A stretch of 64,000 bases of DNA from Pseudomonadota bacterium (GTDB lineage: Bacteria; Pseudomonadota; Gammaproteobacteria; Burkholderiales; Rhodocyclaceae). The notes beneath the pieces are model-generated. The model ran no database searches. It was not told where the DNA came from and saw only the letters and a list, made by a program, of their open reading frames with translations. A program made the translations under genes and the position numbers. The stretch covers positions 1 to 64,000 of the forward strand of contig JAGTRW010000005.1 in the NCBI GenBank assembly GCA_018262095.1, read 5' to 3'. Shown piece by piece: positions 50,092-64,000 of the stretch (position 1 is the first letter of the stretch; each line of letters begins with the position of its first letter).

Positions 50092-51513
50092 TCATTCGCG
50101 CACGCCGCCGCCGAGCACTTTGTAGAGAGTGAGCAGATTGGTTTGCCGCAGAAGCCGCGTACTGACCAGCGAGAGTTGTGCGGCATAGAAGGAGCGCTGA
50201 TAGACGAGCACCGAGAGGTAGCTGTCGACGCCATTCTTATAGCGCAACTCGGCAAGCTGGTAGCTCTGCTCGTAGGAATCCGTCTGCGCCTGCTGGGCGC
50301 GCAGCGCGCCGTCGGCGGTGCCGCGCTGGGCCAGGGCGTCAGCCACTTCGCGGAACGCGGTCTGCACGTCTTTCTCGTAGGTCGCGACCTGGATGTCGCG
50401 CGCGACCTCGGCCTGATCGAGCGACGATTGCAGCCTGCCGCCGGTAAAGATCGGCAGGTTGATTTGCGGCGCGAAGGTCCACAGGCCATTGCCGCCGTTG
50501 AACAGCCGACCCAGTTCGGCGCTGCCGCTGCCCGCGTTGGCGGTCAGCGAGATGCTCGGAAAAAAGGCCGCGCGGGCGGCGCCGATGTCGGCATTGGCGG
50601 CCTTGAGCGCATGCTCGTCGGCGCGCAGGTCGGGGCGGCGCAGCAAGACGTCGGAGGCGAGCCCGGTGGGCACCTCCGGCAACACCGGCGCGCCCTTGAA
50701 GAGCCCCAGCGGCGGCCGCAAATCATCGGGCAGCGGGCTGCCGATCAGCAGCGCCAGCGCGTTCTCGCCCTGTGCCACGCGGGTGGTGTAGGTTGCAATG
50801 TCCACGTCGGCGCCGTCCACGCTCGCCTGCGCCGAAGCCACGTCGATCTGCGACGCGACGCGCGCGTCATGGCGCTTGCGCGTCAGGCGCAGGGTGTGCA
50901 GCAGGCTGTCCAGCGTATCCTTGGCGATCTTCAGGCGCTCCTGGTCCGCTGCGAGGGTCAGATAGCCGCTCACCACCTGAGCAATCACGCTGATCTGCGC
51001 GGCGTCTCGGGTTTCCACCTGTTGCAGCCAGGCTTCGCGGGAAGATTCGGCCTGATTGCTGATCTTGCCGAAGAAATCCAGCTCATAGCTTGAAAATCCG
51101 AGGGTAGCGCTGTAGTTGTGGCTGATCCGCCCGGCCGATTCGCCGACCACGTCGCGCGCGCCCTTGGCCTGGGTCGCCGCGCCGGCGGCGCTGACACTCG
51201 GGAACAGATCGGCACGGCTGACGCCGTAGGCGGCCCGGGCGCGCTCGACGTTGAGCGCGGCGATGCGCAGGTCGCGGTTGTTGGCCAGCGCCATCTCGAC
51301 GAGCTGGCGCGCACGCGCGTCGGCGACGAAGGTTTTCCAACCGGTATCGATGGCGCTGCGCTCACTGTCGCGGGCGGCGCCGGCGTAGGCCCCCTGCGTC
51401 GGCCAGTTCTGTGGCACCGGGGCGTCCGGACGCTCGTACTGCGGCGTCAGCAGCGCGCCGCAGCCGGCGAGGAGCAGGGCGGCGACGGCCGCCGGGAGGA
51501 TACGTGGCATCAT
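50092..51513 (-). CDS. Outer-membrane factor lipoprotein (NodT/OprM family) of the RND system
   Basis: 473 residues from ATG 51513, lipobox LAGC. OEP features: VDTGWKTF-like start ([26 protein letters not shown]), [62 protein letters not shown], and [41 protein letters not shown]. Outer-membrane channel of the MFP-RND-OMF operon. It overlaps the RND stop by four bases (ATGA). A longer upstream reading is inside the RND gene. Confidence 0.92.
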
Positions 51514-54500
51514 TCTGGAGTCCTCTGGTTCTGTTCGGCAGCAGCGGGCTGCACGGCTTTCGACCGGGTCGGGAAGACGCCGCGGATCACCACGAAGAAC
51601 AGCGGAATCAGGAAGATCCCGACCGCCGTCGAGGCGATCATTCCGCCGAGTACCCCGGTACCGATCGCATTTTGTGCGCCGGAGCCGGCGCCGTTGGTCA
51701 AGGCCAGCGGCAACACGCCGAGGCCGAACGCCAGCGAGGTCATCAGGATCGGGCGCAAACGCATGCGCACCGCGGTCAGGGTCGCGTCGATCAGGCTGTG
51801 GCCCTGCTCCTGCAGCGACTTGGCGAATTCGACGATGAGGATCGCATTCTTGGTCGCCAGGCCGACCGTGGCGAGCAGCCCGACCTGGAAGTACACATCG
51901 TTGGAAAGTCCGCGCAGCGTGGTGGCGAGCACGGCGCCGAGCACCCCGAGCGGCACCACGAGAATCACCGAGAAGGGCACCGACCAGCTCTCGTAGAGCG
52001 CCGCCAGACACAGCAGCACCACCAGCACCGAGAGCGCGTAGAGCATCGGCGCCTGCGAGCCGGCCATGCGTTCCTGATACGACAGCCCGGTCCATGAATA
52101 GCCGATGCCGCGCGGCAGCTTGGCGACGAGCTTTTGCATTTCGGCCATGGCCACGCCGGAACTCACGCCGGGCTGCGGCGAGCCCTGGATTTCCAACGAC
52201 GACACCCCGTTATAGCGTTCCAGGCGCGGCGAGGCGAAGGTCCACGACGCCTTGGTGAAGGCCGAAAAGGGCACCATGTCGCCATGGCTGTTCTTGACGT
52301 GCCAGCGGTCGACATCCTTGGGCTGCATGCGGAAGGGCGCATCGCCCTGCACATAGACCTTCTTGGTGCGGCCGTTGTCGAGGAAGTCATTGACGTAGTT
52401 GCCGCCCCAAGCGGTCGACAGCGCCGTATTGATCGACGCGAGGCTCAGGCCGAGCGCGCCGGCCTGGCGTTTGTCGACTTCCAGGCGGTACTGCTGCGTG
52501 TCGTCCATCCCGTTGGGACGCACCCCGGTGAGCAGCGGGCTCTGCGCGGCCATGCCGAGCAGCATGTTGCGGGCGGCCATCAGCTGTTCATGGCCCAGGC
52601 CGCCCTGGTCCTGCAGTTGCAGGTCGAAGCCCGAGGCGTTGCCGAGGTCCATGATGGCCGGCGGAGCAAAGGCGAACACCATCGCCTCGTTGATCTGCGA
52701 GAAAGCGCCCATGGCCCGAGCAGCGACGGCGGCGACACTCTGTTCGGGGCGTGGGCGCAGGCTCCAGTCATTGAGCTGAACGAAGACCATGGCGGTGTTC
52801 TGGCCATTCCCGGCAAAACTGAAGCCGGTGACGGCGAACACCGAATCGACGTTATCCTTCTCGTCGACGAGGAAGTGTTTCTCGACCTTCTCGATCACCT
52901 CCTGGGTGCTCGCCTGCGTCGAACCTGGCGGCAGCATTGCCGAGACGTAGAGGATGCCCTGATCCTCCTCGGGCAGGAACGACGTCGGCATGCGCGCGAA
53001 AAGCACGCCCATGATCAGCACGATGGCCAGATAAATCGCCACCGAGCGGCGCTTGCGCTGCAGGATGGCGGCCACCGCGCCCTGATAGCGGTCGGCGTTG
53101 CGTTCGAAGACACGGTTGAACCAGCCGAAGAAGCCGCGGTGGTGACGTTCGTGGTCTTTCTCCACCGGCTTGAGCAGCGTAGCGCACAGCGCCGGAGTGA
53201 GCACCAGCGCGACCAGCACCGAGAGCGCCATCGACGAGACGATGGTGATCGAGAACTGGCGGTAGATGACACCGGTCGATCCGCCAAAGAAGGCCATCGG
53301 GACGAACACCGCGGAGAGCACCAGACCGATGCCGACCAGGGCGCCGGTGATCTGGTCCATCGACTTGCGCGTGGCTTCCTTCGGCGAGAGCCCTTCCTCG
53401 CTCATCACGCGCTCGACGTTTTCGACCACCACGATGGCATCGTCGACCAATAGCCCGATGGCGAGCACCACGCCAAACATGGTCAGCGTGTTGATCGAAT
53501 AGCCGAAGGCATAGAGGATGCCGAAGGTTCCCAGCAGCACCACCGGCACGGCGATCGTCGGAATCAGCGTGATACGGAAGTTCTGCAGGAACAGGTACAT
53601 CACCAGGAAGACCAGCACGATGGCTTCGCCCAGCGTCTTGATCACCTCGATGATCGAGATCCGCACCACCGGCGTGGTATCGAACGGATTGACCACCGAC
53701 ATGTTTTTCGGGAAATACTGACCGAGTTCGTGCAGCCGGGCGGTGACGGCCTTCGCCGTCTCCAGCGCATTGGCGCCGTTGGTCAGGCTAACGGCGACGC
53801 CGGTGGCCGGCTTGCCGTTGTAGCGCGAGAGCGTGCTGTAGTCCTCGGCACCGATCTCGATTCGCGCGACATCCTTGAGGAATACCGTTGAACCGTCGCT
53901 CTTCGTCTTGAGCAGGATGTTGCCGAACTGTTCTGTCGTCTGCAGCAGCGACTGCGCGGTGATCGTCACGTTGAGCTTCTGCGCCTTGACCGAAGGGGTG
54001 CCGCCGAGCTGGCCGGCCGAGACTTCGGCATTCTGCGCGGCGATCGCGCTGCTCACGTCCGCCAGGTCAAGCTTGTAGGTGTAGAGCTTGTGCGGATCGA
54101 GCCAAATGCGCATCGCATGCTTGGCGCCAAACAGCTGAACGCTGCCGACGCCTTTGACTCGACTGACCGGATCGAGCACGTTGGCCGACACGTAGTCCGA
54201 GAGATCCGTGTCGCTCATGCTGTTATCGTCCGAGACGAAGCCCAGCACCATCAGGAAGTTGGAATTGGCCTTGGCCACCGTGATGCCCTGCGTCTGCACC
54301 ACGCTGGGCAGCTTCGGCGTCGCCAATTGCAGCTTGTTCTGCACCTGTACCTGGGCGATGTCCGGATTGGTACCGGCGTCGAAGGTCAGCGTAATCGACG
54401 CCGATCCCTGTGAATCGCTGGTTGAAGCCATGTAGGCCAGGCCGTCGATGCCCTTCATGTTCTGCTCGATGACCTGCGTGACGGTGTTTTCGATGGTCTG

Positions 54501-54662
54501 GGCTGACGCGCCAGGATAGCTCGCCGAAATGCTCACCTGCGGCGGCGCGACGTTGGGGTACTGCGAAATGGGTAGCTCGACGATGGCCAATACGCCGGCC
54601 AGCATGATGATGATGGCGATCACCCAGGCAAAGATCGGCCGGTCAATGAAGAAACGTGACAT
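51510..54662 (-). CDS. RND multidrug efflux transporter (AcrB/MexB family, HAE1)
   Basis: 1050 residues, standard length. [23 protein letters not shown] at the N-terminus, [10 protein letters not shown]-type porter region, [19 protein letters not shown] in TM4 with the proton-relay aspartates (here [18 protein letters not shown]), and the second-half [15 protein letters not shown] with the relay lysine. These are the charged residues needed for proton-driven export. Broad drug/solvent export from periplasm and inner leaflet is the family role. It follows the MFP gene by 24 bp. Confidence 0.95.
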
Positions 54663-54686
54663 GGATAGGATTTCCCGGCAGTCGGA

Positions 54687-55820
54687 TTAATTGGACGCAG
54701 GTGCTGATGCGGCAGCGGCAGCCGGTGCGATCTGCACCGCAGCGCCGGCCTGCACATACTGCAGTCCGCTGATGATGAGCTGATCGCCCGGACTCAGTCC
54801 GGCGCTGACGAGCCACTGATTGCCCACCGAGCGCGAGGTCTGCACCTCGCGTTCCTCCGCCTTGCCGTCCTTGCCCACCACCATCACGGTGGCCTGGCCC
54901 TTGGCGTTATGCGTGACGTAGTTCTGCTGCACGAGGATGGCCTGTTCGTTGACGCCTTCGATCAGCCGGGCCTTGACAAACATTCCCGGCAGCAGCCGAT
55001 GCTTCGGGTTGCGGAAGATCGCGCGCAGCGTCACCGAACCGGTGCTGGTATCCACCGAAACATCCGCGAACTGCAGCTTGCCCTCCTGCGGGTATTCGCT
55101 GCCGTCCTCAAGCGTCAGCTTGACCCGCGCGGCATTTTCGCCGGCCGCCTTGATCGCGCCACTGGCCAGCTGATTCTGCAGTTCGAGCAGTTCTCGGCTC
55201 GAACGTGTCACGTCCACATAGATCGGATCGAGCTGCTGAACGGTGGCCAGCGCCGTGGCCTGGTCGGCGGTGACCAGTGCCCCGACGGTGACGCTCGATT
55301 TGCCGATGCGCCCGGCCACCGGGGAATACACATGGGTATAGTCCAGATTGATTTTGGCCGTCTGCAGCGCCGCCTCGGCCTGTTTCAGTGCCGCAGCGGC
55401 GTCATCGTAATCCTGCTGACCGATCGCGTCGCTGGCCGCCAATTCCTTGTAGCGCTGGGCCTTCAGGCGCAGCGCCACGACGTTGGCGGCGGCGCTCTCA
55501 TAGGTGGCGCGGTAACTGTCCGGGGCGATCTGATAGAGCGGCTGCCCGGCCTTCACTTCGGCGCCTTCCTCAAAGAGGCGTTTCTGGATGATGCCGCCGA
55601 CCTGCGGGCGCACTTCAGCAATCGTGTGCGCCGAGGTGCGGCCGGCGAGTTCGGTGTCCAGCGCCACGCGCTGCGCGACGATCTGCTGCACATTCACCAC
55701 CGGCGCCTGCTGCTGGCCCTGCGCTTGAGCCTCGTTGCTGCCGGACTGGCAGCCGGTCAGTCCAGACGCGATGGCGGCAGCCAGCAGAAAAACCGGAGGA
55801 GTCCTGAAATGGGGGGGCAT
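54687..55820 (-). CDS. RND efflux periplasmic adaptor (AcrA/MexA family)
   Basis: 377 residues from ATG 55820, lipobox LTGC. Barrel-sandwich segments ELAGRTSAHTIAEVRPQVGGIIQKRLFEEGAEVKAGQPLYQI and AKINLDYTHVYSPVAGRIGKSSVTVGALV flank a hairpin with YKELAASDAIGQQDYDDAAAALKQAEAALQ. These are typical of AcrA. First structural gene of the RND operon, 80 bp behind the TetR gene and in the same direction. Confidence 0.93.
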   Translation of the reverse strand: MPPHFRTPPVFLLAAAIASGLTGCQSGSNEAQAQGQQQAPVVNVQQIVAQRVALDTELAGRTSAHTIAEVRPQVGGIIQKRLFEEGAEVKAGQPLYQIAPDSYRATYESAAANVVALRLKAQRYKELAASDAIGQQDYDDAAAALKQAEAALQTAKINLDYTHVYSPVAGRIGKSSVTVGALVTADQATALATVQQLDPIYVDVTRSSRELLELQNQLASGAIKAAGENAARVKLTLEDGSEYPQEGKLQFADVSVDTSTGSVTLRAIFRNPKHRLLPGMFVKARLIEGVNEQAILVQQNYVTHNAKGQATVMVVGKDGKAEEREVQTSRSVGNQWLVSAGLSPGDQLIISGLQYVQAGAAVQIAPAAAAASAPASN

Positions 55821-55900
55821 GGAAAGGCCTTGTCTCGAAAATGGGGGGAAAGAAGGGCGTACGCTGCGCCAGGGGTCGCTATGGATTTCCAGAAGTTGGC

Positions 55901-56461
55901 TCAGAGTGAATCGGTGAACGCCAGCAGGCGGCCCTGCAGGGCGGTCCGCGTCGCCTCGTCGAAGCGCAGCACACCGGAGGTTTCGGCGAGCCACAGGCCG
56001 TCGGCGGCAAAGCGGCACAACAGCAGCATTTGCGCCAGATCGGGAGCGCGCGCCGTATCCTGGTCGATCAGATTCTGCATCCACTCGCCCTGCTCCCGGG
56101 CGAATTCCGGCAGCGCCAGAGTGAGCAGGAACATCGCCTTCGTGCATAGCGGATCGATCTCAGCAAAGCACACCCGGATATACGCCCGAGTGGCCCGTTT
56201 GGGACTCTCTGGCTCCTGCGCCAGAGCCTCATTGAACATCGGTTCGAACATCTCTTTGAGCGATTCGCATATCCCTCGGAGCAGGACGGCCTTGCTGGAG
56301 AAGTGATATTGCAGACCGCCCTTGCTGACGCCAGCGCGTCTTGCCACTTTGTCGAGCGTCAGCGATCCGTATCCCTCGCTAACGATCAACTCGATGGCAA
56401 CCCTCAACAACTGGGAACGGACTTGATCTGGCTGCTTGCTACGGTGGTGAGCTTCGGACAT
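55901..56461 (-). CDS. TetR-family regulator of the RND operon
   Basis: 186 residues. HTH: LLRVAIELIVSEGYGSLTLDKVARRAGVSKGGLQYHFSSKAVLL. The C-terminal half resembles the TetR_C domain of BetI/YfiR-type regulators. It precedes the MFP-RND-OMF genes in the same direction, so it is probably autoregulated with them. A palindrome 5 bp upstream of its start codon (56466-56489) is the likely operator. Confidence 0.88.
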   Translation of the reverse strand: MSEAHHRSKQPDQVRSQLLRVAIELIVSEGYGSLTLDKVARRAGVSKGGLQYHFSSKAVLLRGICESLKEMFEPMFNEALAQEPESPKRATRAYIRVCFAEIDPLCTKAMFLLTLALPEFAREQGEWMQNLIDQDTARAPDLAQMLLLCRFAADGLWLAETSGVLRFDEATRTALQGRLLAFTDSL

Positions 56462-56697: not shown

Positions 56698-56722
56698 GCG
56701 GCCCGGTTTCAAGAAGCGCTGA
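56698..56722 (+). repeat. Dispersed repeat copy C
   Basis: GCGGCCCGGTTTCAAGAA then gCGCTGA. Over 25 bp it differs from copy B at one base. It overlaps the 3' end of the flavodiiron gene, whose TGA stop is read from it on the minus strand. The hairpin's second arm is missing here. Confidence 0.5.
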
Positions 56723-57902
56723 CGACCTCCTGGCCCAGGTTCACCGCCCGGATGTCGTCGGCGAGCCGGTCGAGTGCGGCGAAGTCTTCGGCCCTGGGCG
56801 CGCCGCCGGTATTGACCGCGTCCAGCCAGGCCACCTTGAGGTTGGGCAGCAGCGCCGTCAAGCTTTCCGGCATCCCGGTTCCCCAGCCGTACGAGCCGAT
56901 GATAGCCGCGTATTTCGTTTTCGGCCGCAAGGCGTTGGCCAGGTAGGCGGCGTAGGCCATCGCCGGGTGCGGGCCGTCGAGTACGGTCGGCGAGGCGAAG
57001 ACGATCGTCGATGCTTCGACCAGCGCCGAGGCGAAGCGCCCGGAGTCGAGGTCGACGACGTTGAACGGCTGCACCGAGAGGCCTTTTCCCATCAGCCGGT
57101 CGACGAGATAGGCGACCATTTTTGCCGTGCTCTCGTACATCGAGAGGTAGGGGATCACCACCTGTGGTCGCGTTTGATCGCCGGCCCAGCGGCGGTAGAG
57201 CGACAGGATGAAGTCGGGGCGCGCATGGACCGGGCCGTGGCTGGGCGCGATCATCTCGATGTCGACGCCTTCGAGGCGCTTGAGGTGCTTATTCACGTTG
57301 GGCCGGTAGGGCATCATGATTTCGGCGTAGTAGGTGAGCGCCGCGCGTTCGACGCGCGCTTCGTCGCTGGCGTAAAGATCGGAGGTCGCCAGGTGGGCGC
57401 CGAGGAAGTCGCACGAGAAGACGATGCGATCTTCCTGGAGATAGGTGATGGTCGTATCCGGCCAATGCACCCAGGGCACCCACATGAAGCGCAGCGACTT
57501 GTCGCCGAGCGAGATCACCTGCTCGTCCTGGATCAGCGTCAGCGCTTCGGCCGGCAGCTTGAGCGCCGCTTTGAGCAGGCTGCGGCACTTGACGTTGGCG
57601 AGTACGCGCGCTTCGGGAAACTCGGCGAGCAGCGCGGGGATCGAACCCGAGTGGTCGGCCTCGGCGTGGTTGGAAACGATGTAGTCGAGACGCGCGAGGC
57701 CCATGCCCTTGAGTGCCTTGATCAGGTCATCGCTCATCGACGGATGGACGGTGTCGATCAGCGCGGTCTTCTCGCTGCCCTTGACCAGGTAGGCGTTGTA
57801 GCTGGTGCCTTCGGGCAGCGGAACGAGTTCGTCGAAGAGCTTGCGGTCCCAGTCGATGGCCGACAGCGAATAGACCTTGGGCTTGAGTTCTCTGACAATC
57901 AT
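56709..57902 (-). CDS. fprA: Flavodiiron protein (FprA/A-type flavoprotein)
   Basis: 397 residues. A metallo-beta-lactamase-like diiron domain (1-245) is followed by a flavodoxin domain. The iron ligands are complete: H79, E81, D83 and H84 in SNHAEADHSG, H146 in WVHWPDT, D165 in SCDFLGAH, H222 in SHGPVHA. The FMN domain begins VVIPYLSMYESTAKMVAYLVDRL. Such proteins reduce O2 or NO to protect anaerobic enzymes. It is the last gene of the right-edge operon and overlaps the phosphatase gene by four bases, suggesting it guards the oxygen-sensitive radical SAM step. Confidence 0.9.
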   Translation of the reverse strand: MIVRELKPKVYSLSAIDWDRKLFDELVPLPEGTSYNAYLVKGSEKTALIDTVHPSMSDDLIKALKGMGLARLDYIVSNHAEADHSGSIPALLAEFPEARVLANVKCRSLLKAALKLPAEALTLIQDEQVISLGDKSLRFMWVPWVHWPDTTITYLQEDRIVFSCDFLGAHLATSDLYASDEARVERAALTYYAEIMMPYRPNVNKHLKRLEGVDIEMIAPSHGPVHARPDFILSLYRRWAGDQTRPQVVIPYLSMYESTAKMVAYLVDRLMGKGLSVQPFNVVDLDSGRFASALVEASTIVFASPTVLDGPHPAMAYAAYLANALRPKTKYAAIIGSYGWGTGMPESLTALLPNLKVAWLDAVNTGGAPRAEDFAALDRLADDIRAVNLGQEVVSAS

Positions 57903-58549
57903 GGGTTGATCCTTTGCGGTTGAGGTGCGGGTGCAAGGCAAATTCCGCCGCGCAGGTCGGCGGGGCGGCCGTTGATCAGGCTGACGCAGAAGCCCTGCGC
58001 GCCGTGCTCGATGACATTGACACAGCCGTAGTCCTGGGCGATGCCGAACAGGCTGGCGACCGGTCGCGCCAACAGATGGCACAGCAGCAGGCGGTTGACT
58101 CCGGCGTGGCCGACGACGACGGTGTTGCCGTCATGGCGCAGGATCTCTTCCCAGACGGTCAGTACGCGCTGCCGACAGTCGGCGAAGCTCTCGCCGCCGG
58201 CGACTCGATAGTTTTCGAGGTCGTCGCCGCGCGCCGCGTAGTCCTTGGGAAAGCGCGCGGCGACTTCGCGCCGCGACAGGCCTTCCCAGTTGCCCAGCGA
58301 AATTTCACGCAGCTCGTGGCGTACTTCGATCGCGATCGCCTTCTGGCCAGCGATGATCCGCGCCGTCTGCTGCGAGCGCGCCAGGTCGCTGCAATAGATC
58401 GCGTCGATCGGCTTCTCGCGCAAGACTTCGCCGAGCACCTCGGCCTGGGCGATTCCGTCGGGCGCGAGCGGCAGGTCGAGCTGGCCGATGAAGCGTTCGC
58501 GGCTGCCGGCGGCGAGCGCGCCGTGGCGCAGCAGATAGACCTCCGTCAT
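57899..58549 (-). CDS. Histidine phosphatase (CobC/phosphoglycerate mutase-like)
   Basis: 216 residues. The RHG motif is LLRHGALAAGS at the N-terminus; the second catalytic histidine lies in VVVGHAGVNRLLL; YCSDLARSQQTA and LREISLGNWEGLSRRE are typical of alpha-ribazole phosphatase-like enzymes. CobC would act in cobalamin synthesis, but there are no cobalamin genes around. In this operon it more likely removes a phosphate from the pathway's own intermediate. Overlaps both neighbours by four bases. Confidence 0.85.
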   Translation of the reverse strand: MTEVYLLRHGALAAGSRERFIGQLDLPLAPDGIAQAEVLGEVLREKPIDAIYCSDLARSQQTARIIAGQKAIAIEVRHELREISLGNWEGLSRREVAARFPKDYAARGDDLENYRVAGGESFADCRQRVLTVWEEILRHDGNTVVVGHAGVNRLLLCHLLARPVASLFGIAQDYGCVNVIEHGAQGFCVSLINGRPADLRGGICLAPAPQPQRINP

Positions 58550-59880
58550 GGCGACGGCTCGACCACGATGCTTCGCTTGCCGACGCGGCCGGGCAGCCGG
58601 TCGTCGCGCGCGATGCTGACCGAGAATTGCAGGCCGTTGGCCATCGCCGCGGCGATCGGCGGGATTGCCGCGAGCGCTGTGCTGACCTCGGCGACCAGCG
58701 CAGTGTCGCGCTGCGTCGCAGCGACGCGAGCGACTTGCGTGACTTCGACGTGCAAGCTCGGCGGCGGTCCGCTGCGCCAGCTCGGCACGAAGTCGGCGAC
58801 GAACTCGATCGCGAGCAGCGCTTCGTCGAGCGCGCCGATGGTGAGCGTGCCGCCTGCGCCGAGGTCGACTCCCGCAGCGACCCGCCGCTCGATTCGTCCG
58901 AGTCGCGTCAGCGGCGAGCCGCAGGCGCAGGGTCCCGGCAGCCGGCGCGAAATGTCGCCGCTGCGATAGCGCACGAGCGGCATGCCGCGCCGCGTGAGCG
59001 TGGTGAACACCACCTCGCCGGGTTCGCCGTCGGCGACCGGTTCGCCGCTCACCGGATCGACGATTTCGACGAGCAGCTCGCTCTCGCGCAGGTGGTAGCC
59101 GGCGTGCGCCGCGCAATCGACGCCGCCGCCCAATCCCATCTCAGTCATCCCGTAGTGTTCAAAAATCTCGCAGCCCCAGAGTTGCGCGAGGCATCGGCGA
59201 ACGGCAGCGCTCGCCTGGTCGGCACTGAGCAGCACGCTGCGCACGCGCACCGGCTGTCCCGTAGCCGCCGCGTAGCGCGCCACGGCGAGCAGCGGCACCG
59301 GCGCGCCGACGACGACGTCGGTTCGCTCGCGGCGCAGCGCGGCGGCGGCGGCGGCGAGATCCTGCGGCCAGCCATAGGCGATCGGCGTCGCGCACTGGCG
59401 GCTCAAGGCTTGGGCCAGCAGCTCGCCGACGCTGCCCGGCCGCTCGCCGGGGAACAGGATCAGCACCCGGTCGCCGGGCTGCGCCAGAACGCGCATGCCG
59501 TGGTCGAAAAAATCGAGCGTCGCCGCCTGTTCCTGCGCGGTGAAGAAAATCCGTTTGGCGGGCCCGCTGGTTGCCGAAGTTTCGAGCGTGACGATGCGGC
59601 TCACCTCGCTCTGCGAGACGCAGAGCAGCGGCGGATCGTTGGTCCGCAGATCGTCGGCGGTGGTGAATGGCAGCTCGCGCAGCGCGTCGAGCGTACTCAG
59701 GCCGGCTGCGTCGAAGTCCGCCAGCCGGTGTCGGTAGAACGGGCTCTTCGCCTTGGCCCAGGCCAGCGTTTGGCGCAGTTGGCGCAACTGATAGGCGGCG
59801 AGATCGGCGCGCGTCAGCAGCGCTCCGGGACTGCCGATCTGCTGCGCGGTCCAGGCGTCGAGGGGATTGGTCGGGAGCAT
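58546..59880 (-). CDS. AMP-dependent CoA ligase-like protein (PaaK-related; DVU_1553-like)
   Basis: 444 residues, adenylate-forming fold related to phenylacetate-CoA ligase. TSATSGPAKRIFFT is the phosphate-binding loop, EHYGMTEMG the A5-like motif, and MPLVRYRSGDISRRL the A7 motif. A CxC pair follows (GPCACGSPLTRLGRIERR), as in PaaK-type ligases. It should activate a carboxylate as an acyl-AMP or acyl-CoA. The acid is not known. It lies four bases after the radical SAM gene and overlaps the phosphatase gene. I recall this subfamily from a Desulfovibrio locus (memory, to be checked). Confidence 0.78.
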   Translation of the reverse strand: MLPTNPLDAWTAQQIGSPGALLTRADLAAYQLRQLRQTLAWAKAKSPFYRHRLADFDAAGLSTLDALRELPFTTADDLRTNDPPLLCVSQSEVSRIVTLETSATSGPAKRIFFTAQEQAATLDFFDHGMRVLAQPGDRVLILFPGERPGSVGELLAQALSRQCATPIAYGWPQDLAAAAAALRRERTDVVVGAPVPLLAVARYAAATGQPVRVRSVLLSADQASAAVRRCLAQLWGCEIFEHYGMTEMGLGGGVDCAAHAGYHLRESELLVEIVDPVSGEPVADGEPGEVVFTTLTRRGMPLVRYRSGDISRRLPGPCACGSPLTRLGRIERRVAAGVDLGAGGTLTIGALDEALLAIEFVADFVPSWRSGPPPSLHVEVTQVARVAATQRDTALVAEVSTALAAIPPIAAAMANGLQFSVSIARDDRLPGRVGKRSIVVEPSP

Positions 59881-59884
59881 AGGC

Positions 59885-61282
59885 TCAGGCCTCGACGCTC
59901 GCCGGCGTTCGATAGAGCGAGTCGCCCGAGAGCGAGGTGAGGTTGTAGGCGCAGAACGGAACGATTCGCCGGTCGGGCGAGACGACGTGGATGAAGCACT
60001 CGCGCAAGCGTTCGAGATCGAGGTTCCAGGCGTCCTGGAAAGCCATCGCCGAGAGGCAGAAACTATGCTGGCGGTCGGCCAGGAACGCATCGAAACTGGC
60101 GACGTCGATTCCCTGTAGCTCGTCGCCGCTGCGCGCCTTGTTCGCCACCCAGTGCGCGGCGACGAAACGGCGCGCGCGCGCCGCGTCGGCGGACGGCACG
60201 CCGCAGCCGCAGGCCGGCGCGCTGTGCTCGGCTTCGCCCGCCGGCGCCGCGCAGCAACTGCTGGCGGGCGCGGCTGAGCGCAGCGCGCCGTCGCGGCCGA
60301 CGAAGAACTTGCCGGTAAATGAGCAATAGGCGTTCTCGGCCGACCCCGGAGCGAAGTCGGCGGCGCGAACGCGGCCGCCGGTCTGCGCTTCGAGTTGCGC
60401 CATGACCTCCGGCAGCGTGATGCGGTCATCGTCGGCGGGCGGCTTCGGGTAGCGGCCGAAGTAGCTGATCGGCTGGAAATGTACGGCACGCACCGCCGGG
60501 ACGCGCGCCAGCGCGAAATCGACGATGGCGCCGATCGCATCGACATTGACGCCGGGGACCAGCGTCGGCACCAGCACGACGCCCAGACCGGCGGCGGCGC
60601 AGCGGGCTATCGCCTCTTTCTTGACCGCCAGCAGGCGGGCGCCACGAATGGTCTGGTAGACCGCGTCGCTGACCCCGTCGAACTGCAGGAAGACGCAGTC
60701 GAGCCCGGCGTCGACCAGGCGGCGCGCATAGCCGTCCTCCTTGGCCAGGCGAATGCCGTTGGTATTGATCTGGACGAAGCCGAAACCGAGCGAACGGGTC
60801 AGCTCGATGATTTGCGGCAGGTCGTCGCGCAGCGTCGGCTCGCCGCCCGAGAGCTGGATGTTGAGTTCGCTGCCGTGCGCCTCGAGCAGGCGCAGCCAGC
60901 GCTCGATTTCGGAAAGGTCGGGATCGCACTGGTCGTCGGCCGCCGAGGCAAAGCAGATCGGGCACTTGAGGTTGCAGCGCTGGGTGACTTCGAGCAGCAC
61001 GCAGCAGCTGTGCTGGCGGTGATCGGGGCAGAGCCCGCAGTCGTGCGGACAACCGCGCACGACGCTTGTTTCGGTGTGCGGCGGCGGCGCGGCGCGGCTG
61101 CCGCGTTCGCCCCAGCGGTGATAGCTATCGAGACCGCGCCAGATCACGGTCTTGAAGCGACCGTGTTGGTCGCACTCTTTGACGAGATAGACGCTATCGC
61201 CTTCGGCGACGCGTTGCGCCGCCACGCGCTGCAGGCAGACCGGGCAGACGCTCTCGGTCGACGCCAGGATTCTTGCGCTCAC
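59885..61282 (-). CDS. Radical SAM enzyme with extra cysteine clusters (TrsS-like, related to Tes/MJ0619)
   Basis: 465 residues from GTG 61282, which overlaps the upstream stop (GTGA). N-terminal CPVC (13-16) with C37; then GCPHDCGLCPDHRQHSCC (C78, C82, C85, C93, C94); then the radical SAM motif CNLKCPIC (C103, C107, C110) and SGGEPTLRDD. The GCPxDCGLCPxH element before the radical SAM motif is also found in the tetraether lipid synthase/MJ0619 group. A further cysteine group (C343-C344, C358, C360) follows the barrel. I recall a family named TrsS, some members of which contain selenocysteine. The product is unknown; lipid or cofactor modification is inference. Confidence 0.8.
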   Translation of the reverse strand: MSARILASTESVCPVCLQRVAAQRVAEGDSVYLVKECDQHGRFKTVIWRGLDSYHRWGERGSRAAPPPHTETSVVRGCPHDCGLCPDHRQHSCCVLLEVTQRCNLKCPICFASAADDQCDPDLSEIERWLRLLEAHGSELNIQLSGGEPTLRDDLPQIIELTRSLGFGFVQINTNGIRLAKEDGYARRLVDAGLDCVFLQFDGVSDAVYQTIRGARLLAVKKEAIARCAAAGLGVVLVPTLVPGVNVDAIGAIVDFALARVPAVRAVHFQPISYFGRYPKPPADDDRITLPEVMAQLEAQTGGRVRAADFAPGSAENAYCSFTGKFFVGRDGALRSAAPASSCCAAPAGEAEHSAPACGCGVPSADAARARRFVAAHWVANKARSGDELQGIDVASFDAFLADRQHSFCLSAMAFQDAWNLDLERLRECFIHVVSPDRRIVPFCAYNLTSLSGDSLYRTPASVEA

Positions 61283-62415
61283 GGCAACGGCCGCACGCCG
61301 CTGTCGGCGAGGATCTTGGCGATCGGCGCGCGCGCTTTGCGCTCGACCAGCGCCAGGATCGCGCACGCCGTCTGGTAGCGGCGGGTGGCGCCCTGCAGCG
61401 CCTCGGGGCGGTCGCGAAAACGCTCGAACGACGGGGCGTAGCGCTCTTCGAGCGAGACGATCCGGTCGCCGCTGACCAGCTTGTCGGCGAGGAAGACGAT
61501 CGCCGCCTCGTTGGTCGTGCTGCCGTCGAAGCTCATCGACATGTGCTGGCGGATCACGTCGGCGACCGCCGGATAGCCGAGTTCCTCGACCAGCGCTGCG
61601 CCGACCTCGGCATGGCCGGGCTGGCCCTTGGCGATGTCGTGCAGCAGGCTGGCGGCAAGCACCAGACCGAGGTCGATGGCGACGCCGCGCGCCGCCAGCT
61701 TTCCGGCGATCGTCCGCGCCACTGCGGTGACGGCGCGGCCGTGCCGACGCAGCGCGTCCGAAGTCGGCCGCGTCGCCAGGATCGCTTCGCATTCGGCCGG
61801 CGTCGGCAGGTGGCGGCGCAACGCCAGCGCGGCGAGTTGCGCGTAGTCTTCGGGCGTGTCCATGTCGAGAACGACGCCCTCGTCGAGCACGTCGACGTCG
61901 GCCGCTTGGTGCGTCTGCAGCAGCGCGCGCAATCCGCCATCGCCTTGGCCGGCCAGGATTTCGGCGAACAGCGAACGCGCGATCAGCGGCGGGTGGCCGC
62001 GCCGCCCGCTAAAGCGCGGGTAGGTGATCGGCGCCTGCTGCGCGGCGATCGTCGCCGCCAGCGCGGCGATCGTCGCCGGCCGCACCAGCGGGATGTCGAC
62101 CGGCAACAGGAAGCAGGCGTCGACGTCGGCCGGCAGCGCTGCGATTCCGGCCTGGACGCTCGAAAACATGCCGCGCTCGTAAGCCGGGTTGGCGATCGCG
62201 CCGACCTCAAGCTCGTGCAGCAGCGGCTCGAGCTGCTCGGCCTGGTGGCCGGTGACGACGCCGATCCGGTCGATTCCCGCCTGGCGGAAGCTGCGCACGA
62301 CGCGCGCCAGGACGGTCTGCCCGCCAAACGGCAACAGCGCCTTGGCGCGGCCCATGCGCGACGAATAGCCGGCGGCGAGGATCAGCGCGGCGAGTTTGGG
62401 GGAACGTTCATTCAT
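61279..62415 (-). CDS. Nucleotidyltransferase fused to an HD domain (MocA-like; DVU_1551-like)
   Basis: 378 residues. N-terminal NTP transferase (1-195) with LAAGYSSRMGRAKALLPFGG, D107 in PVDIP and RGHPPLI, closest to MocA/MobA-type molybdopterin nucleotidyltransferases. C-terminal HD phosphohydrolase domain (about 205-370), with H225, H259-D260 in SLLHDIAKGQPGHAE, and NEAAIVFLADKLVSGDR. The fusion suggests transfer and later removal of a nucleotide or phosphate group on one substrate. GAGG nine bases before ATG 62415. A MocA role in cytidylating molybdopterin is possible given the moa operon elsewhere, but the operon argues for its own substrate. Confidence 0.82.
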   Translation of the reverse strand: MNERSPKLAALILAAGYSSRMGRAKALLPFGGQTVLARVVRSFRQAGIDRIGVVTGHQAEQLEPLLHELEVGAIANPAYERGMFSSVQAGIAALPADVDACFLLPVDIPLVRPATIAALAATIAAQQAPITYPRFSGRRGHPPLIARSLFAEILAGQGDGGLRALLQTHQAADVDVLDEGVVLDMDTPEDYAQLAALALRRHLPTPAECEAILATRPTSDALRRHGRAVTAVARTIAGKLAARGVAIDLGLVLAASLLHDIAKGQPGHAEVGAALVEELGYPAVADVIRQHMSMSFDGSTTNEAAIVFLADKLVSGDRIVSLEERYAPSFERFRDRPEALQGATRRYQTACAILALVERKARAPIAKILADSGVRPLP

Positions 62416-62434
62416 TCTAAAGACCTCAGTTATA

Positions 62435-62553
62435 ACCACAGCGACACGGCGAACACAGCGAAATTCCTAAGTTTTTACTCCAACCCGCCGGGTGACCCCA
62501 GAAACCATCGCAAGCAATTGTTTTTCCGCTGTGTTCGCTGTGTTCGCCGTGGT
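62435..62553. repeat. Long imperfect inverted repeat in an operon gap
   Basis: Left arm 62435-62463 (starts ACCACAGCGACACGGCGAAC) and right arm 62521-62553, whose reverse complement starts ACCACGGCGAACACAGCG. About 29 bp arms differ by three substitutions and one indel, with 57 bp between. CGAACACAG is repeated inside the right arm. No coding region. It is the only large gap (156 bp) in the operon. Confidence 0.7.
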
Positions 62554-62571
62554 CAACTGCTTTTTCCAGGT

Positions 62572-63033
62572 TCATGGCCGCGCGCCCTGTTCGGCGCCGC
62601 TGCGCCCGTCGAGTTCGAAGCCGTTGGCCTCGAGGATTTCAGTCGCCTTGTGCACGGCGTCGAGGATCAGTCCCGGGCAGCGCTCGCCGCGCAGCTGCGG
62701 CTTGCGCTCGATGATCTGCGCGCAATCGATGCCGCCGTAGCGCGGCGTATATTCGGCGCGGAACCAGTCGACGTATTCTTCGAGCATCAGCGGCAGGCTC
62801 GGGTGGTCGTCGCGTTCGCCGTCGCCTCCAGCGTACAGGCCGATCAGGCAGCAGCCGCCGGTCAGCGCGCCGCAAGCGAGGCCGCAGCCCATTCCCGAGG
62901 CCAGCCCGGACATCGCGCGCAGCAACTCCGGATTGCTCTGGTCCTGCGCGTCGAGGCCGATCTGCACCAGGATGTGGCTGCAGCGGTAGCCCTTGAGCGA
63001 GAGCTCGGCGACGCGAAACGAAATGTCGGTCAT
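62572..63033 (-). CDS. C-GCAxxG-C-C family protein (DVU_1555-like)
   Basis: 153 residues. Conserved cysteines: C18 (GYRCSH), the core GMGCGLACGALTGGCCLIG with C50, C54, C61 and C62, then C104 (GIDCAQII) and C119. This pattern defines a small redox family found mainly in anaerobes and thought to bind a metal cluster or carry electrons. ATG 63033 overlaps the methyltransferase stop by four bases. In this operon it is a likely electron donor or partner for the radical SAM enzyme. Confidence 0.82.
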   Translation of the reverse strand: MTDISFRVAELSLKGYRCSHILVQIGLDAQDQSNPELLRAMSGLASGMGCGLACGALTGGCCLIGLYAGGDGERDDHPSLPLMLEEYVDWFRAEYTPRYGGIDCAQIIERKPQLRGERCPGLILDAVHKATEILEANGFELDGRSGAEQGARP

Positions 63034-63788
63034 CGGCGCGATTCCTTTACTGACTTGCTGGCGATCATTAGAAAATAACCCGGCCGCGATCGGCGCAGGC
63101 AGGCGCCCAGCGATGCCGCGTCGCCGGGCGCGGCGCCGCGCCACAGGCTGTCGAGCGAGCCGCTCTCGAAAATGAGTCGGGCGACGAAGGTCTTGAGCAC
63201 CGCCGAGTGGTTCTCCCAGCGCTCGATCCGGAAACCGGCGTCGATCAGCCGGGCGACGATTTCATCGCGCCCGCGGTGGCTGGCGAGGCAGCCAGCCAGC
63301 GGCGCGGGGCCGGCGGCGTCGCAGACGCGCGCGTAGACGTCGGTGATCGCCAGCGGCGCGCCCGGGCGCAGCACGCGGTGGCATTCGGCGAGCACGGCGG
63401 GGGCAAAGCCAGCCAGCGAGAGCGAGCATTCGGCGAGTATTCCGTCGATCGATTCGGTGGCAAAAGGCAGTCGCGCGGCGTCGGCGGCGAGCAGCGAGAC
63501 CGCCGCGAGACCCTCGGCGGCGGCTTGTGAATGAGCCGCGAGGCGCTCTGCGGCGGTGGCCAGCGCGCGCAGCGACCGATCGACGCCGATCGCCTGGCAG
63601 CCGGCGCGGCGCAGCAGCTCGGTGCCGGCCGCTTCGCCGCAACCCAGGTCGACGATCGTCTGACCGGCGGCGAAGCCCGCGCAGCGCAAGGCATGTCGTG
63701 TCAGGTCGAGGCCGCCGGGACGCAGCGCTTGGTCAGCGTCGGCAAAATGGCCGCTGTGGTAGGGCGGCGCGGCGAGCTGACAATCCAT
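63030..63788 (-). CDS. SAM-dependent methyltransferase (DVU_1556/TrsM-like)
   Basis: 252 residues. Class I methyltransferase with the SAM-binding motif TIVDLGCGEAAGTELL (about 44-59), GVDRSLRALATAAER, and a Methyltransf_11-like core with LPFATESIDGILAECSLS and ECHRVLRPGAPLAITDVYAR. The C-terminal ~60 residues are helical and specific. The start overlaps the upstream stop by one base (TAATG). In the operon it could methylate a small molecule activated by the ligase or nucleotidyltransferase. Confidence 0.85.
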   Translation of the reverse strand: MDCQLAAPPYHSGHFADADQALRPGGLDLTRHALRCAGFAAGQTIVDLGCGEAAGTELLRRAGCQAIGVDRSLRALATAAERLAAHSQAAAEGLAAVSLLAADAARLPFATESIDGILAECSLSLAGFAPAVLAECHRVLRPGAPLAITDVYARVCDAAGPAPLAGCLASHRGRDEIVARLIDAGFRIERWENHSAVLKTFVARLIFESGSLDSLWRGAAPGDAASLGACLRRSRPGYFLMIASKSVKESRR

Positions 63789-64000
63789 TACTTGTCCTCC
63801 AGCGCGCGTTCGACGTCGAGCATCTTGCCCAGCGCCAGCGCCTCGGGAACGTAGGTGAAGCCGCAGCCCGGGCAGCGCAGCAGATCGACCGGAAAGTCGT
63901 TGCCCAGGTAGCTCGCGGTGACCTTGCCGAGCACCAGCGGCTGTTGGCACTTGGCGCAGATCAATTGGCTGTCGCTGGGCGCGGGTGGTATTTCGCTCAT
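63788..64000 (-). CDS. Small CxxC zinc/redox protein (DVU_1557-like)
   Basis: 70 residues. Paired CAKC (C15, C18) and CPGC (C43, C46) form a rubredoxin- or zinc-ribbon-like site, followed by a helix (EALALGKMLDVERALEDK). The ATG is the last codon of the window, so a longer N-terminus and promoter beyond the edge cannot be excluded. First visible gene of the operon. I recall a family of this form named after DVU_1557 as a redox protein; metal content is not known. Confidence 0.75.
   Translation of the reverse strand: MSEIPPAPSDSQLICAKCQQPLVLGKVTASYLGNDFPVDLLRCPGCGFTYVPEALALGKMLDVERALEDK

What the first reader, a model, noticed from the sequence alone, without database searches (positions are those of the whole stretch)
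56709..64000. Right-edge operon: radical SAM, methyltransferase, AMP ligase, NTP transferase-HD, phosphatase, flavodiiron
Eight minus-strand genes, nearly all overlapping by 1-4 bases, combine carboxylate activation, nucleotidyl transfer, dephosphorylation, methylation, radical chemistry and small cysteine redox proteins. That set reads as a full biosynthetic or modification pathway, yet no known product pathway has this composition. From memory, NCBI families named after Desulfovibrio vulgaris DVU_1551, 1553, 1555, 1556, 1557 and TrsS match in kind and order; their function is undescribed as far as I know. Presence in a likely betaproteobacterium extends it beyond strict anaerobes.
Basis: partly seen in the sequence, partly recalled or inferred. 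Interest (0 to 1): 0.88.

Follow-up and report, generated by a model that had tools for sequence, protein, structure and literature searches.

The report
Aldehyde-oxidase operon with an unsolved pathway
The eight genes are the downstream half of a conserved bacterial operon built around a molybdenum aldehyde-oxidising enzyme, and they include an unsolved set of radical, ligase and methylation genes that nearly always accompanies that enzyme in the genomes sampled, so a new cofactor or pathway may hide behind a textbook protein.

Summary
In detail: eight minus-strand genes at 56709-64000, five of seven junctions overlapping by 1-4 bases, six proteins above NCBIfam's curated cut-offs (DVU_1557, 1556, 1555, 1551, TrsS, 1553). 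The window cuts the operon: upstream lie a dicluster oxidoreductase ("dicl"), a MOP-type molybdenum aldehyde oxidoreductase (AOR), XdhC, a ferredoxin-like frame and MoeA.

In three genome draws AOR came with TrsS in 45 of 46 genomes; the exception runs off its contig. TrsS also occurs without AOR. Close relatives of a crystallised AOR carry the whole cluster, yet native D. gigas AOR holds plain molybdopterin cytosine dinucleotide. So the Trs genes probably do not modify AOR's pterin.

New here: dicl has two complete HdrB-type CCG motifs; its C-terminal domain looks RelE/DUF4258-like, and DVU_1557 looks like a YgiT/MqsA-type zinc finger. Both rest on profile comparison with controls. TrsS keeps the metal ligands reported for tetraether synthase, including the labile Met, but not its Tyr459.

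Best reading (inferred): a pathway for a small organic group used by dicl, AOR's possible electron acceptor. Product and function are untested.

The parts
63788..64000 (-). DVU_1557-family small zinc-finger-like protein (70 aa, CxxC...CxxC); its ATG overlaps the stop codon of the upstream dicluster oxidoreductase by 4 bases
   Evidence: NF045645 96.7 bits (cut-off 60), PF24292 DUF7479; family profile against a YgiT-finger profile by hhalign: probability 96.3 over 44 columns, controls
63030..63788 (-). DVU_1556-family class I SAM methyltransferase
   Evidence: NF045667 198 bits (cut-off 155); PF08241
62572..63033 (-). DVU_1555-family C-GCAxxG-C-C protein; predicted all-alpha fold without a significant PDB match
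   Evidence: NF045669 151 bits (cut-off 103), PF09719; model pLDDT 87.8; Foldseek best E 4.2
62416..62571 (.). 156-base intergenic spacer made of a dispersed repeat
   Evidence: 33 of the 38 non-self matches of the operon in its own genome fall in this part of the query
61279..62415 (-). DVU_1551-family MocA-like nucleotidyl transferase fused to an HD domain; probable molybdopterin cytosine dinucleotide synthase (inference)
   Evidence: NF045665 444 bits (cut-off 315); MocA TIGR03310 157 bits (cut-off 186); PF12804 and PF01966
59885..61282 (-). TrsS, radical SAM enzyme related to tetraether lipid synthase (GTG start)
   Evidence: NF045646 639 bits (cut-off 490); PDB 7tol E 3e-87; ligand positions
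58546..59880 (-). DVU_1553-family AMP-forming ligase (PaaK-like) with P-loop, Y-R-T/S-G-D and A10-type Lys435
   Evidence: NF045666 453 bits (cut-off 300); PDB 4r1l phenylacetate-CoA ligase E 2.1e-32; conservation over 83 rows
57899..58549 (-). histidine phosphatase, alpha-ribazole phosphatase-like
   Evidence: TIGR03162 163.0 bits (cut-off 162.9), PF00300
56709..57902 (-). flavodiiron-type (A-type flavoprotein) protein, accessory in this operon
   Evidence: PF19583 ODP 76.8 bits (cut-off 27.2); PRK11921 213.8 bits, below its cut-off 635; homologue in 10 of 49 full-flank loci
63997..64000 (-). last bases (stop codon region) of the upstream gene, the pyridine nucleotide-disulfide oxidoreductase/dicluster protein NF045663; its body lies beyond the window at L009:3998-6307

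Best explanation
The region is the 3' half of an aldehyde-oxidation operon. SHOWN by sequence: the enzyme is a MOP-type molybdenum aldehyde oxidoreductase, followed by a dicluster FAD/NAD-type oxidoreductase (dicl) with two complete HdrB-type CCG motifs. MoeA, XdhC and the MocA-like 1551 form a molybdenum-cofactor part. TrsS, 1556, 1557 and the C-terminal domain of dicl, nearly always with 1553 and in AOR operons also 1555, form a second, separable part (the Trs module). INFERRED: AOR passes electrons to dicl. The Trs module makes or installs a small organic group needed by dicl, not by the AOR pterin: 1553 activates a carboxylic acid as its adenylate, 1556 methylates, and TrsS abstracts hydrogen from an unactivated carbon and couples it by tetraether-synthase-type chemistry, which passes through a carbon-sulfur bond to a cluster. 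The RelE-like C-terminal domain of dicl is the docking or carrier site and 1557 is its zinc-finger partner. The flavodiiron protein probably removes oxygen or NO. The nature of the product (thiol/disulfide-like or lipid-like) is not known.
For: Operon continuation and AOR identity (NF045668 1534/1100 bits; PDB 1sij 1226 bits). Conserved order over 80 TrsS-selected loci; in the 49 with full flanks dicl 49 and AOR, 1553, 1555, 1556, 1557 48 each, of which AOR 43 at 600 bits or more and 1556 47 at 100 bits or more. AOR genomes (E 1e-250) also holding TrsS (E 1e-110): 3 of 3, 17 of 17, 25 of 26; 38 of 39 without the genomes through which the draws were entered; the exception G708 runs off its contig inside dicl. 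TrsS over cut-off without AOR in 6 of 23 genomes of the G469 phylum draw. Full-length 1551 in 0 of 7 AOR-less genomes against 12 of 17 with AOR. The whole set beside AORs that score 1929 and 1767 bits to the crystallised 1dgj AOR, while D. gigas AOR from its own cells has plain MCD (PMC10223205, PMC3877041, passages). Two CCG motifs in 82 of 83 dicl ORFs. dicl-C and 1557 stand next to each other as separate genes in 7 of 7 clusters of the AOR-less clade. TrsS ligands. In G469 the AOR part and the Trs part lie on different contigs, each with its own dicl-C and 1557.
Against: No product, substrate or phenotype is known. The dicl C-terminal domain has no conserved Lys or Cys that would be an obvious attachment site. 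Two-CCG proteins also occur in enzymes that do not reduce disulfides (recalled). In D. gigas electrons go from AOR to flavodoxin in vitro (PMC10223205), so dicl as acceptor is not proven. In the AOR-less clade the CCG-type dicl is beside the module in 5 of 7, 1553 in 6 of 7 and 1555 in only 2 of 7. L072 has TrsS and none of the partners in its 13 kb. G768 keeps TrsS, 1553, 1555, 1557, 1551 and XdhC with only a short dicl piece, no 1556 and no AOR.
Confidence: 0.4

Rival explanations
1. Catabolic route: AOR oxidises an aldehyde to a carboxylate, 1553 converts the acid to an acyl-CoA or acyl adenylate, and TrsS and the methyltransferase process that intermediate; the operon degrades one particular compound.
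For: 1553 is PaaK-like with a conserved adenylation apparatus. An AOR-less cluster, L170, sits beside HGD-D and BcrAD-type proteins, whose relatives act on CoA esters (recalled); L175 has similar frames by eye. Aldehyde dehydrogenase, tungsten-AOR and sigma-54 regulator look-alikes recur near the clusters (names by eye).
Against: Among the 22 recurring neighbour clusters printed no thiolase or hydratase was recognised by eye. The module keeps its small proteins 1557 and dicl-C in very different hosts. The 1553 proteins of L176 and L177 (360 and 377 aa) lack the C-terminal end with the Lys.
Confidence: 0.2
2. The Trs module matures AOR itself, for example by modifying molybdopterin or a residue near the active site.
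For: AOR came with TrsS in 45 of 46 genomes of three draws; the Pfam name for the TrsS N-terminus is that of a pterin methylase (PF23545).
Against: D. gigas AOR purified from its own cells shows plain MCD at 1.28 A (PMC10223205, passages), and close relatives of the 1dgj AOR carry the whole cluster. Trs modules persist in genomes without AOR; with the 1551 profile at E 1e-20, 5 of 7 of those show no MocA-type domain, against 1 of 17 with AOR. The tetraether synthase authors rejected the pterin methylase assignment for MJ0619 (PMC9433317). The strains of the crystallised AORs were not themselves checked for the cluster.
Confidence: 0.1
3. The Trs module makes a membrane-spanning or ether lipid, like its relative Tes.
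For: TrsS matches Tes 7tol at E 3e-87, keeps its metal ligands and the labile Met; bacterial Tes homologues have been proposed to make brGDGTs (PMC8941075, passages).
Against: TrsS scores 365 bits against the Tes cut-off 450 and falls apart from 11 Tes-like rows in a quick tree (support 92, long branches flagged). The Tyr459 position, conserved in archaeal Tes, is Val, Thr or Ile in 87 of 96 TrsS rows and Tyr in none. No lipid gene was recognised by eye among the 22 recurring clusters printed.
Confidence: 0.12
4. dicl-C and 1557 are a redox-responsive toxin-antitoxin-like switch, and the module regulates translation in response to the state of the aldehyde pathway.
For: RelE-type fold hits (none below E 0.001), DUF4258/YgiT profile matches and the same gene order as such pairs.
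Against: The DUF4258 signature residues are not conserved in dicl-C, which has its own set; no reason is seen for a ligase, methyltransferase and TrsS to accompany a switch.
Confidence: 0.08

Closest known systems
Desulfovibrio aldehyde oxidoreductase (MOP; PDB 1sij/1vlb; 1dgj, organism of 1dgj recalled)
   Same: Upstream AOR is a single-chain MOP-type enzyme, NF045668 1534 bits (cut-off 1100), 1226 bits to 1sij
   Different: The passages read (PMC10223205, PMC3877041) treat AOR with flavodoxin as partner; the word operon does not occur in the main text of PMC10223205
Tetraether lipid synthase Tes (MJ0619, 7tol)
   Same: Rubredoxin-type, N-terminal cluster, radical SAM and labile-Met positions conserved
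   Different: Below the Tes cut-off; Tyr459 position never Tyr in 96 rows; Cys at 343/344 not found in 8 proteobacterial Tes-like rows; different neighbourhood
Heterodisulfide reductase HdrB/HdrD and other two-CCG proteins (motif recalled)
   Same: Two CX28-42CCX30-38CxxC motifs in 82 of 83 dicl ORFs
   Different: Fused to a Fer4_20/FAD-NAD part and to a RelE-like C-terminal domain
MqsR/MqsA and DUF4258/YgiT gene pairs
   Same: dicl-C against DUF4258 probability 69.6 over 75 columns; 1557 against YgiT 96.3; same gene order
   Different: In AOR operons dicl-C is fused to an oxidoreductase; it misses the DUF4258 Pfam cut-off (13.2 against 25) and has other conserved residues
MocA, CTP:molybdopterin cytidylyltransferase
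   Same: 1551 N-terminal domain, TIGR03310 E 6.6e-46
   Different: 157 bits against cut-off 186; carries an HD domain

Membership tests
DVU_1551/1553/1555/1556/1557/TrsS families of NCBIfam | score above the curated cut-off | tested here: met
   six of six
MOP-type molybdenum aldehyde oxidoreductase (upstream gene) | NF045668 cut-off 1100 bits, single chain | tested here: met
   1534 bits over 5-905; 1sij over 4-903
Tetraether lipid synthase Tes | NF045702 cut-off 450 bits | tested here: not met
   365 bits
Tetraether lipid synthase Tes | metal ligands reported for rubredoxin, N-cluster, RS cluster and labile Met | tested here: met
   C13,C16,C37,H40; C78,C82,C85,H88; C103,C107,C110 in 96 of 96 rows, M413 in 95 of 96 (one gap); the own protein is counted twice among the 96; numbering matched by me through the 7tol alignment and PMC9433317; the Cys ligands of the C-terminal cluster were not named in the passages read
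Tetraether lipid synthase Tes | Tyr459, reported as conserved in 1,000 archaeal homologues | tested here: not met
   aligned position 433: V 65, T 13, I 9, A 2, N, E, Q, H 1 each, 3 gaps of 96; the paper reports Y459F and Y459L variants as active
Tetraether lipid synthase Tes | couples lipid tails | not testable with these tools
   needs enzyme assay
MocA | TIGR03310 cut-off 186 bits | tested here: not met
   157 bits; none of 27 cluster genomes has a match over that cut-off, all 27 have one at E 1e-15
Alpha-ribazole phosphatase CobC | TIGR03162 cut-off 162.9 bits | tested here: inconclusive
   163.0 bits; no cobalamin nucleotide-loop test was made
Heterodisulfide reductase-like CCG proteins | two complete CCG motifs | tested here: met
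   82 of 83 ORFs of at least 250 bits; the one failure, L075, is a 275-residue fragment at a contig end
Heterodisulfide reductase | disulfide reductase activity | not testable with these tools
   needs assay
DUF4258 (dicl C-terminal domain) | Pfam gathering score 25 bits | tested here: not met
   one of six dicl-C sequences hit it, 13.2 bits, E 0.11; another (L115) hit the unrelated Peptidase_C23 at E 0.084, so this hit alone is worth nothing
RelE/DUF4258 fold class (dicl C-terminal domain) | fold and profile similarity above controls | tested here: met
   22 of the 23 best Foldseek hits bear toxin or toxin-antitoxin titles, best E 6.8e-3, none below 0.001, TM about 0.4-0.5; hhalign 69.6 against at most 1.2 for 19 other families and 2.3 in 60 column shuffles
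YgiT-type zinc finger (1557) | TIGR03831 cut-off 20.2 bits | tested here: inconclusive
   one of four 1557 proteins reached it (L175, 23.7 bits); the window's own had no YgiT hit, and two (L171, L184) had a stray NrfH hit at E 6.5e-4 and 1.7e-4; profile-profile 96.3, up to 18.8 in 60 column shuffles
Flavodiiron proteins | metallo-beta-lactamase-type diiron domain | tested here: met
   PF19583 76.8 bits against 27.2; no flavodoxin domain was hit in Pfam at E 0.01

The most novel reading that the evidence does not exclude
The Trs module makes an unknown coenzyme or prosthetic group by adenylation, methylation and tetraether-synthase-type radical chemistry at a cluster sulfide. It is built on, or delivered to, a toxin-fold (RelE/DUF4258-like) domain recruited from a toxin-antitoxin-like pair and fused to an Hdr-like oxidoreductase, with the antitoxin-type zinc finger 1557 kept as its partner. 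It would be the missing electron-acceptor system of Mo aldehyde oxidoreductases and, in other hosts, of other enzymes.
Probability: 0.25. Interest if true: 0.92.

Novelty: new variant of a known kind. Interest (0 to 1): 0.72.

Why it matters
Desulfovibrio gigas aldehyde oxidoreductase was the first xanthine-oxidase-family enzyme with a crystal structure (PMC10223205) and is a reference for the family, yet 45 of 46 AOR genomes sampled here also carry an uncharacterised radical SAM, ligase and methyltransferase module. If the module makes a redox group for the dicluster protein, it explains where AOR electrons can go and adds a new coenzyme. It also warns that bacterial 'Tes homologues' counted as membrane-spanning-lipid candidates (PMC8941075) may include TrsS proteins of aldehyde operons (inference). 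A toxin-fold domain with its zinc finger at work in an oxidoreductase would be a new use of a toxin-antitoxin-type pair.

Tried and rejected
A pterin-modifying role was the first idea, because of the MocA-like and pterin-methylase-like names. It was set back by D. gigas AOR with plain MCD and by Trs modules in genomes without AOR. A cobalamin role for the phosphatase, from the nearby CbiM-type gene, was not pursued. Whether the phosphatase travels with 1551 was looked at with a greedy gene map: adjacent in 10 of 25 loci holding both, too weak to use; that map also drops overlapping genes. Selenocysteine in TrsS: three rows whose match ended early were flagged; L009 is the intact own protein split by the profile, L184 is a frameshift, L085 was not examined. 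The 1555 fold gave no useful PDB match. Literature: listing searches for TrsS and DVU numbers, Tes relatives, AOR structure, DUF4258/YgiT, Tes mechanism and AOR gene clusters showed no described function for the module; TrsS was seen only as a table entry in a list of selenoprotein families (PMC13188914, passages). Papers of which passages were seen: PMC13188914, PMC10223205, PMC3877041, PMC8941075, PMC4287179, PMC10920352, PMC11784015, PMC9433317, PMC11186832, PMC2701414; none was read whole.

Limits of counts: the 80 loci are the best 80 of 348 relatives and were chosen by TrsS, so TrsS is present by construction. Presence was called with profiles seeded from the window's own proteins. Among the 49 full-flank loci AOR is at 600 bits or more in 43, weaker in five (L089, L090, L103, L113, L117) and absent in L069; 1556 is at 100 bits or more in 47. 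Three presence/absence draws were run: own family, phylum of G469, class of G453, the last two entered through TrsS-bearing genomes. Without the entry genomes the AOR counts with TrsS are 2 of 2, 16 of 16 and 20 of 21. For TrsS without AOR I used over-cut-off matches in the phylum draw (6 of 23; 9 of 26 at E 1e-110) and E 1e-110 in the others (1 of 4; 3 of 28): 10 of 55. Of these, G446 has an AOR-like frame cut by the end of the stretch fetched, and G722 and G726 lie on contigs of 5,990 and 8,358 bases.

Full report
WHAT IS THERE. Corrected coordinates and junctions are from the printed sequence. Six of the eight proteins pass curated NCBIfam cut-offs for the DVU_1557, 1556, 1555, 1551, TrsS and 1553 families. 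Pfam agrees: DUF7479, Methyltransf_11, C_GCAxxG_C_C, NTP_transf_3 plus HD, Radical_SAM with an HMPTM-type zinc ribbon, AMP-binding, His_Phos_1 and ODP. The window is G000:C20:1-64000 of a 4.80 Mb genome in 82 contigs, 97.7% complete.

THE WINDOW CUTS THE OPERON. Continuing past base 64000 (L009) on the same strand: NF045663 pyridine nucleotide-disulfide oxidoreductase/dicluster protein ('dicl', 966 bits, cut-off 530), whose stop codon overlaps the start of the 1557 gene; NF045668 molybdopterin-dependent aldehyde oxidoreductase (1534, cut-off 1100); an XdhC-family protein (NF045664 283, below its cut-off 350); a ferredoxin-like frame (by eye); and MoeA (NF007960 543, cut-off 440). The best solved relatives of the AOR are 1sij (1226 bits) and 1dgj (1197 bits). 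On the other side, divergent, lie a CbiM-type gene, a NosP-like receptor (below its cut-off) and, further on, a ferredoxin-like frame and a frame resembling tungsten AOR (the last two by eye).

CONSERVATION. TrsS is rare in the phylum: over the cut-off in 1 of 299 Pseudomonadota genomes, the own one, and in 4 of 150 genomes of the own family. A scan of named genomes found 348 relatives, of which the best 80 were kept. They include Beta- and Alphaproteobacteria, Acidobacteriota, Bacillota, Chloroflexota, Synergistota, Geobacteraceae and Syntrophobacteraceae. With profiles seeded from the own proteins, the 49 loci with full flanks hold dicl 49, AOR, 1553, 1555, 1556 and 1557 48 each, XdhC 38, 1551 30, phosphatase 25, ferredoxin-like 16, flavodiiron 10 and MoeA 7; stricter scores give AOR 43 and 1556 47. 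The usual order is AOR, dicl, 1557, 1556, 1555, (1551), TrsS, 1553.

DEPENDENCE. AOR genomes (E 1e-250) that also have TrsS (E 1e-110): 3 of 3 in the own family (150 genomes), 17 of 17 in the phylum of G469 (218 genomes) and 25 of 26 in the class of G453 (200 genomes). Two of these AORs (G576, G828) and the TrsS of G816 are partial and below their cut-offs. The exception, G708, ends at a contig edge inside dicl just downstream of AOR. Leaving out the genomes through which the draws were entered gives 38 of 39. The reverse is weaker: TrsS occurs without a listed AOR in 1 of 4, 6 of 23 and 3 of 28 genomes; G446 nevertheless has an AOR-like frame at the end of the stretch fetched, and G722 and G726 are short contigs. 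Fisher p values are 7e-6, 1e-20 and 2e-27, but genomes are related and these are not independent trials.

TWO MODULES. The seven AOR-less clusters read from the G469 phylum (L170-L175, L184) form one TrsS clade (support 100 in a quick tree). L170 sits beside 2-hydroxyglutaryl-CoA dehydratase-type and BcrAD-type proteins, L175 beside similar frames by eye; L174 lies near RACo and corrinoid-binding proteins, L172 near a RACo-like frame by eye; L171 and L184 have no obvious partner. In these seven, dicl-C, 1557, 1556 and TrsS are present in 7, 1553 in 6, a CCG-type dicl in 5 and 1555 in 2. Other AOR-less loci (L067, L069) fall elsewhere in the tree. Full-length 1551 is over its cut-off in 12 of 17 AOR genomes and 0 of 7 AOR-less ones (p 0.002); counting separate N-terminal domains at E 1e-20 it is 16 of 17 against 2 of 7. 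In 27 of 27 cluster genomes tested a MocA-like domain was found at E 1e-15, none over the MocA cut-off. So 1551 goes with AOR, whose D. gigas form carries a cytosine dinucleotide cofactor (PMC10223205), while TrsS, 1556, 1557 and dicl-C go together. In G469 the two parts lie on different contigs: MoeA-like, AOR, dicl, 1557, XdhC, 1551 on C3, and dicl-C, 1557, 1556, 1555, TrsS, 1553 on C12.

NOT A VISIBLE CHANGE OF AOR. D. gigas AOR purified from its own cells has MCD, two 2Fe-2S centres and an oxo ligand in place of the sulfido ligand (PMC10223205 and PMC3877041, passages). The genomes of the crystallised strains themselves were not identified here, so the argument is by close kinship.

DICL AND ITS C-TERMINAL DOMAIN. 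Two complete CCG motifs are found in 82 of 83 dicl-family ORFs. The last 90 or so residues are a separate gene in minimal clusters. An AlphaFold2 model from 33 sequences has pLDDT 88.5. Of Foldseek's 23 best PDB hits 22 bear toxin or toxin-antitoxin titles (RelE, HigB, ParE, MqsR complexes), best E 6.8e-3 and TM about 0.4-0.5, with none below E 0.001: suggestive, not decisive. In Pfam one of six dicl-C sequences hit DUF4258 at E 0.11, but another hit an unrelated peptidase at E 0.084, so that hit served only as a lead. Profile-profile comparison then gave dicl-C against DUF4258 69.6% over 75 columns, and 1557 against YgiT fingers 96.3% over 44 columns; eight control pairs gave 1.9% or less. 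Against 19 other families the best were 1.2% and 4.8%, and in 60 column shuffles 2.3% and 18.8%. The YgiT and DUF4258 profiles were built by me from the genomes. DUF4258 and YgiT genes are neighbours there (for example G478:C18, G510:C1, G511:C16), toxin-type gene first, the order in which dicl-C precedes 1557. Most DUF4258 signature residues are not shared, a Tyr near the end being the exception; dicl-C has its own near-invariant Thr, Trp, Glu, Tyr, Tyr, His and Arg. The domain pair therefore looks recruited and changed in function. The name 'redox protein' for 1557 has no support here beyond its cysteines.

TRSS. The nearest solved protein is tetraether synthase 7tol (E 3e-87). With the ligands named in PMC9433317 and the numbering carried over through that alignment, TrsS keeps C13, C16, C37 and H40; C78, C82, C85 and H88; C103, C107 and C110 (96 of 96 rows, own protein twice); and M413, the counterpart of the labile Met439 (95 of 96). 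Cys429 and Cys444 are kept in 93 of 96 (three gaps). The Tyr459 position is Val, Thr or Ile in 87 of 96 and Tyr in none. Eight proteobacterial Tes-like rows lack the Met, have Ser at 429 with Cys at 430, and Asp or Glu at 444. Tes works through a carbon-sulfur bond to its C-terminal cluster (PMC9433317); TrsS could therefore end in C-C or C-S bond formation. That is inference.

LIGASE. Over 83 rows 1553 keeps a P-loop, the Y-R-T-G-D motif and Lys435 (93%), so adenylation is likely; the own protein has Ala103 and Ser307 where most have Gly and Thr, and L176 and L177 lack the C-terminal end. Motif names are recalled.

VERDICT. A real, conserved and uncharacterised gene module, tied to Mo aldehyde oxidoreductase in nearly all AOR genomes sampled. 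The context is known in kind; the module's chemistry and the toxin-fold-like domain are not.

Noticed in passing
window 62416-62571: The 156-base spacer inside the operon is a dispersed repeat with inverted halves; 33 other places in the genome match this part.
   Followed up: partly
L009:18190-20000 (G000:C20, beyond the window): A ferredoxin-like frame much like the one upstream of XdhC, followed by a frame resembling tungsten aldehyde ferredoxin oxidoreductase; similar frames recur in six loci (names by eye).
   Followed up: partly
L009:12378-17439: A divergent CbiM-type cobalt transporter gene and a NosP-like chemoreceptor next to the operon.
   Followed up: no
L170, L175: TrsS modules beside HGD-D and BcrAD-type genes (L170 by Pfam, L175 by eye) without AOR: a possible second client enzyme.
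   Followed up: partly
L172, L174: TrsS modules with a 240-residue protein without a Pfam hit (tested in L174) between 1557 and 1556, and RACo-like and TRAP-like genes alongside.
   Followed up: no
L045 L047 L053 L063 L064 L066 L076 L083: A frame that looks by eye like a group 4 NiFe hydrogenase large subunit recurs near the AOR cluster, hinting at aldehyde-to-hydrogen electron flow.
   Followed up: no
L043 and 18 other loci: A sigma-54 AcoR-like regulator (by eye) recurs near the cluster in 19 loci.
   Followed up: no
window 62572-63033: The 1555 C-GCAxxG-C-C family is predicted with good confidence as an all-alpha fold with no useful PDB match.
   Followed up: partly
window 50092-56461: Downstream of the operon lie frames that look by eye like an RND efflux set with a TetR-type regulator.
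   Followed up: no
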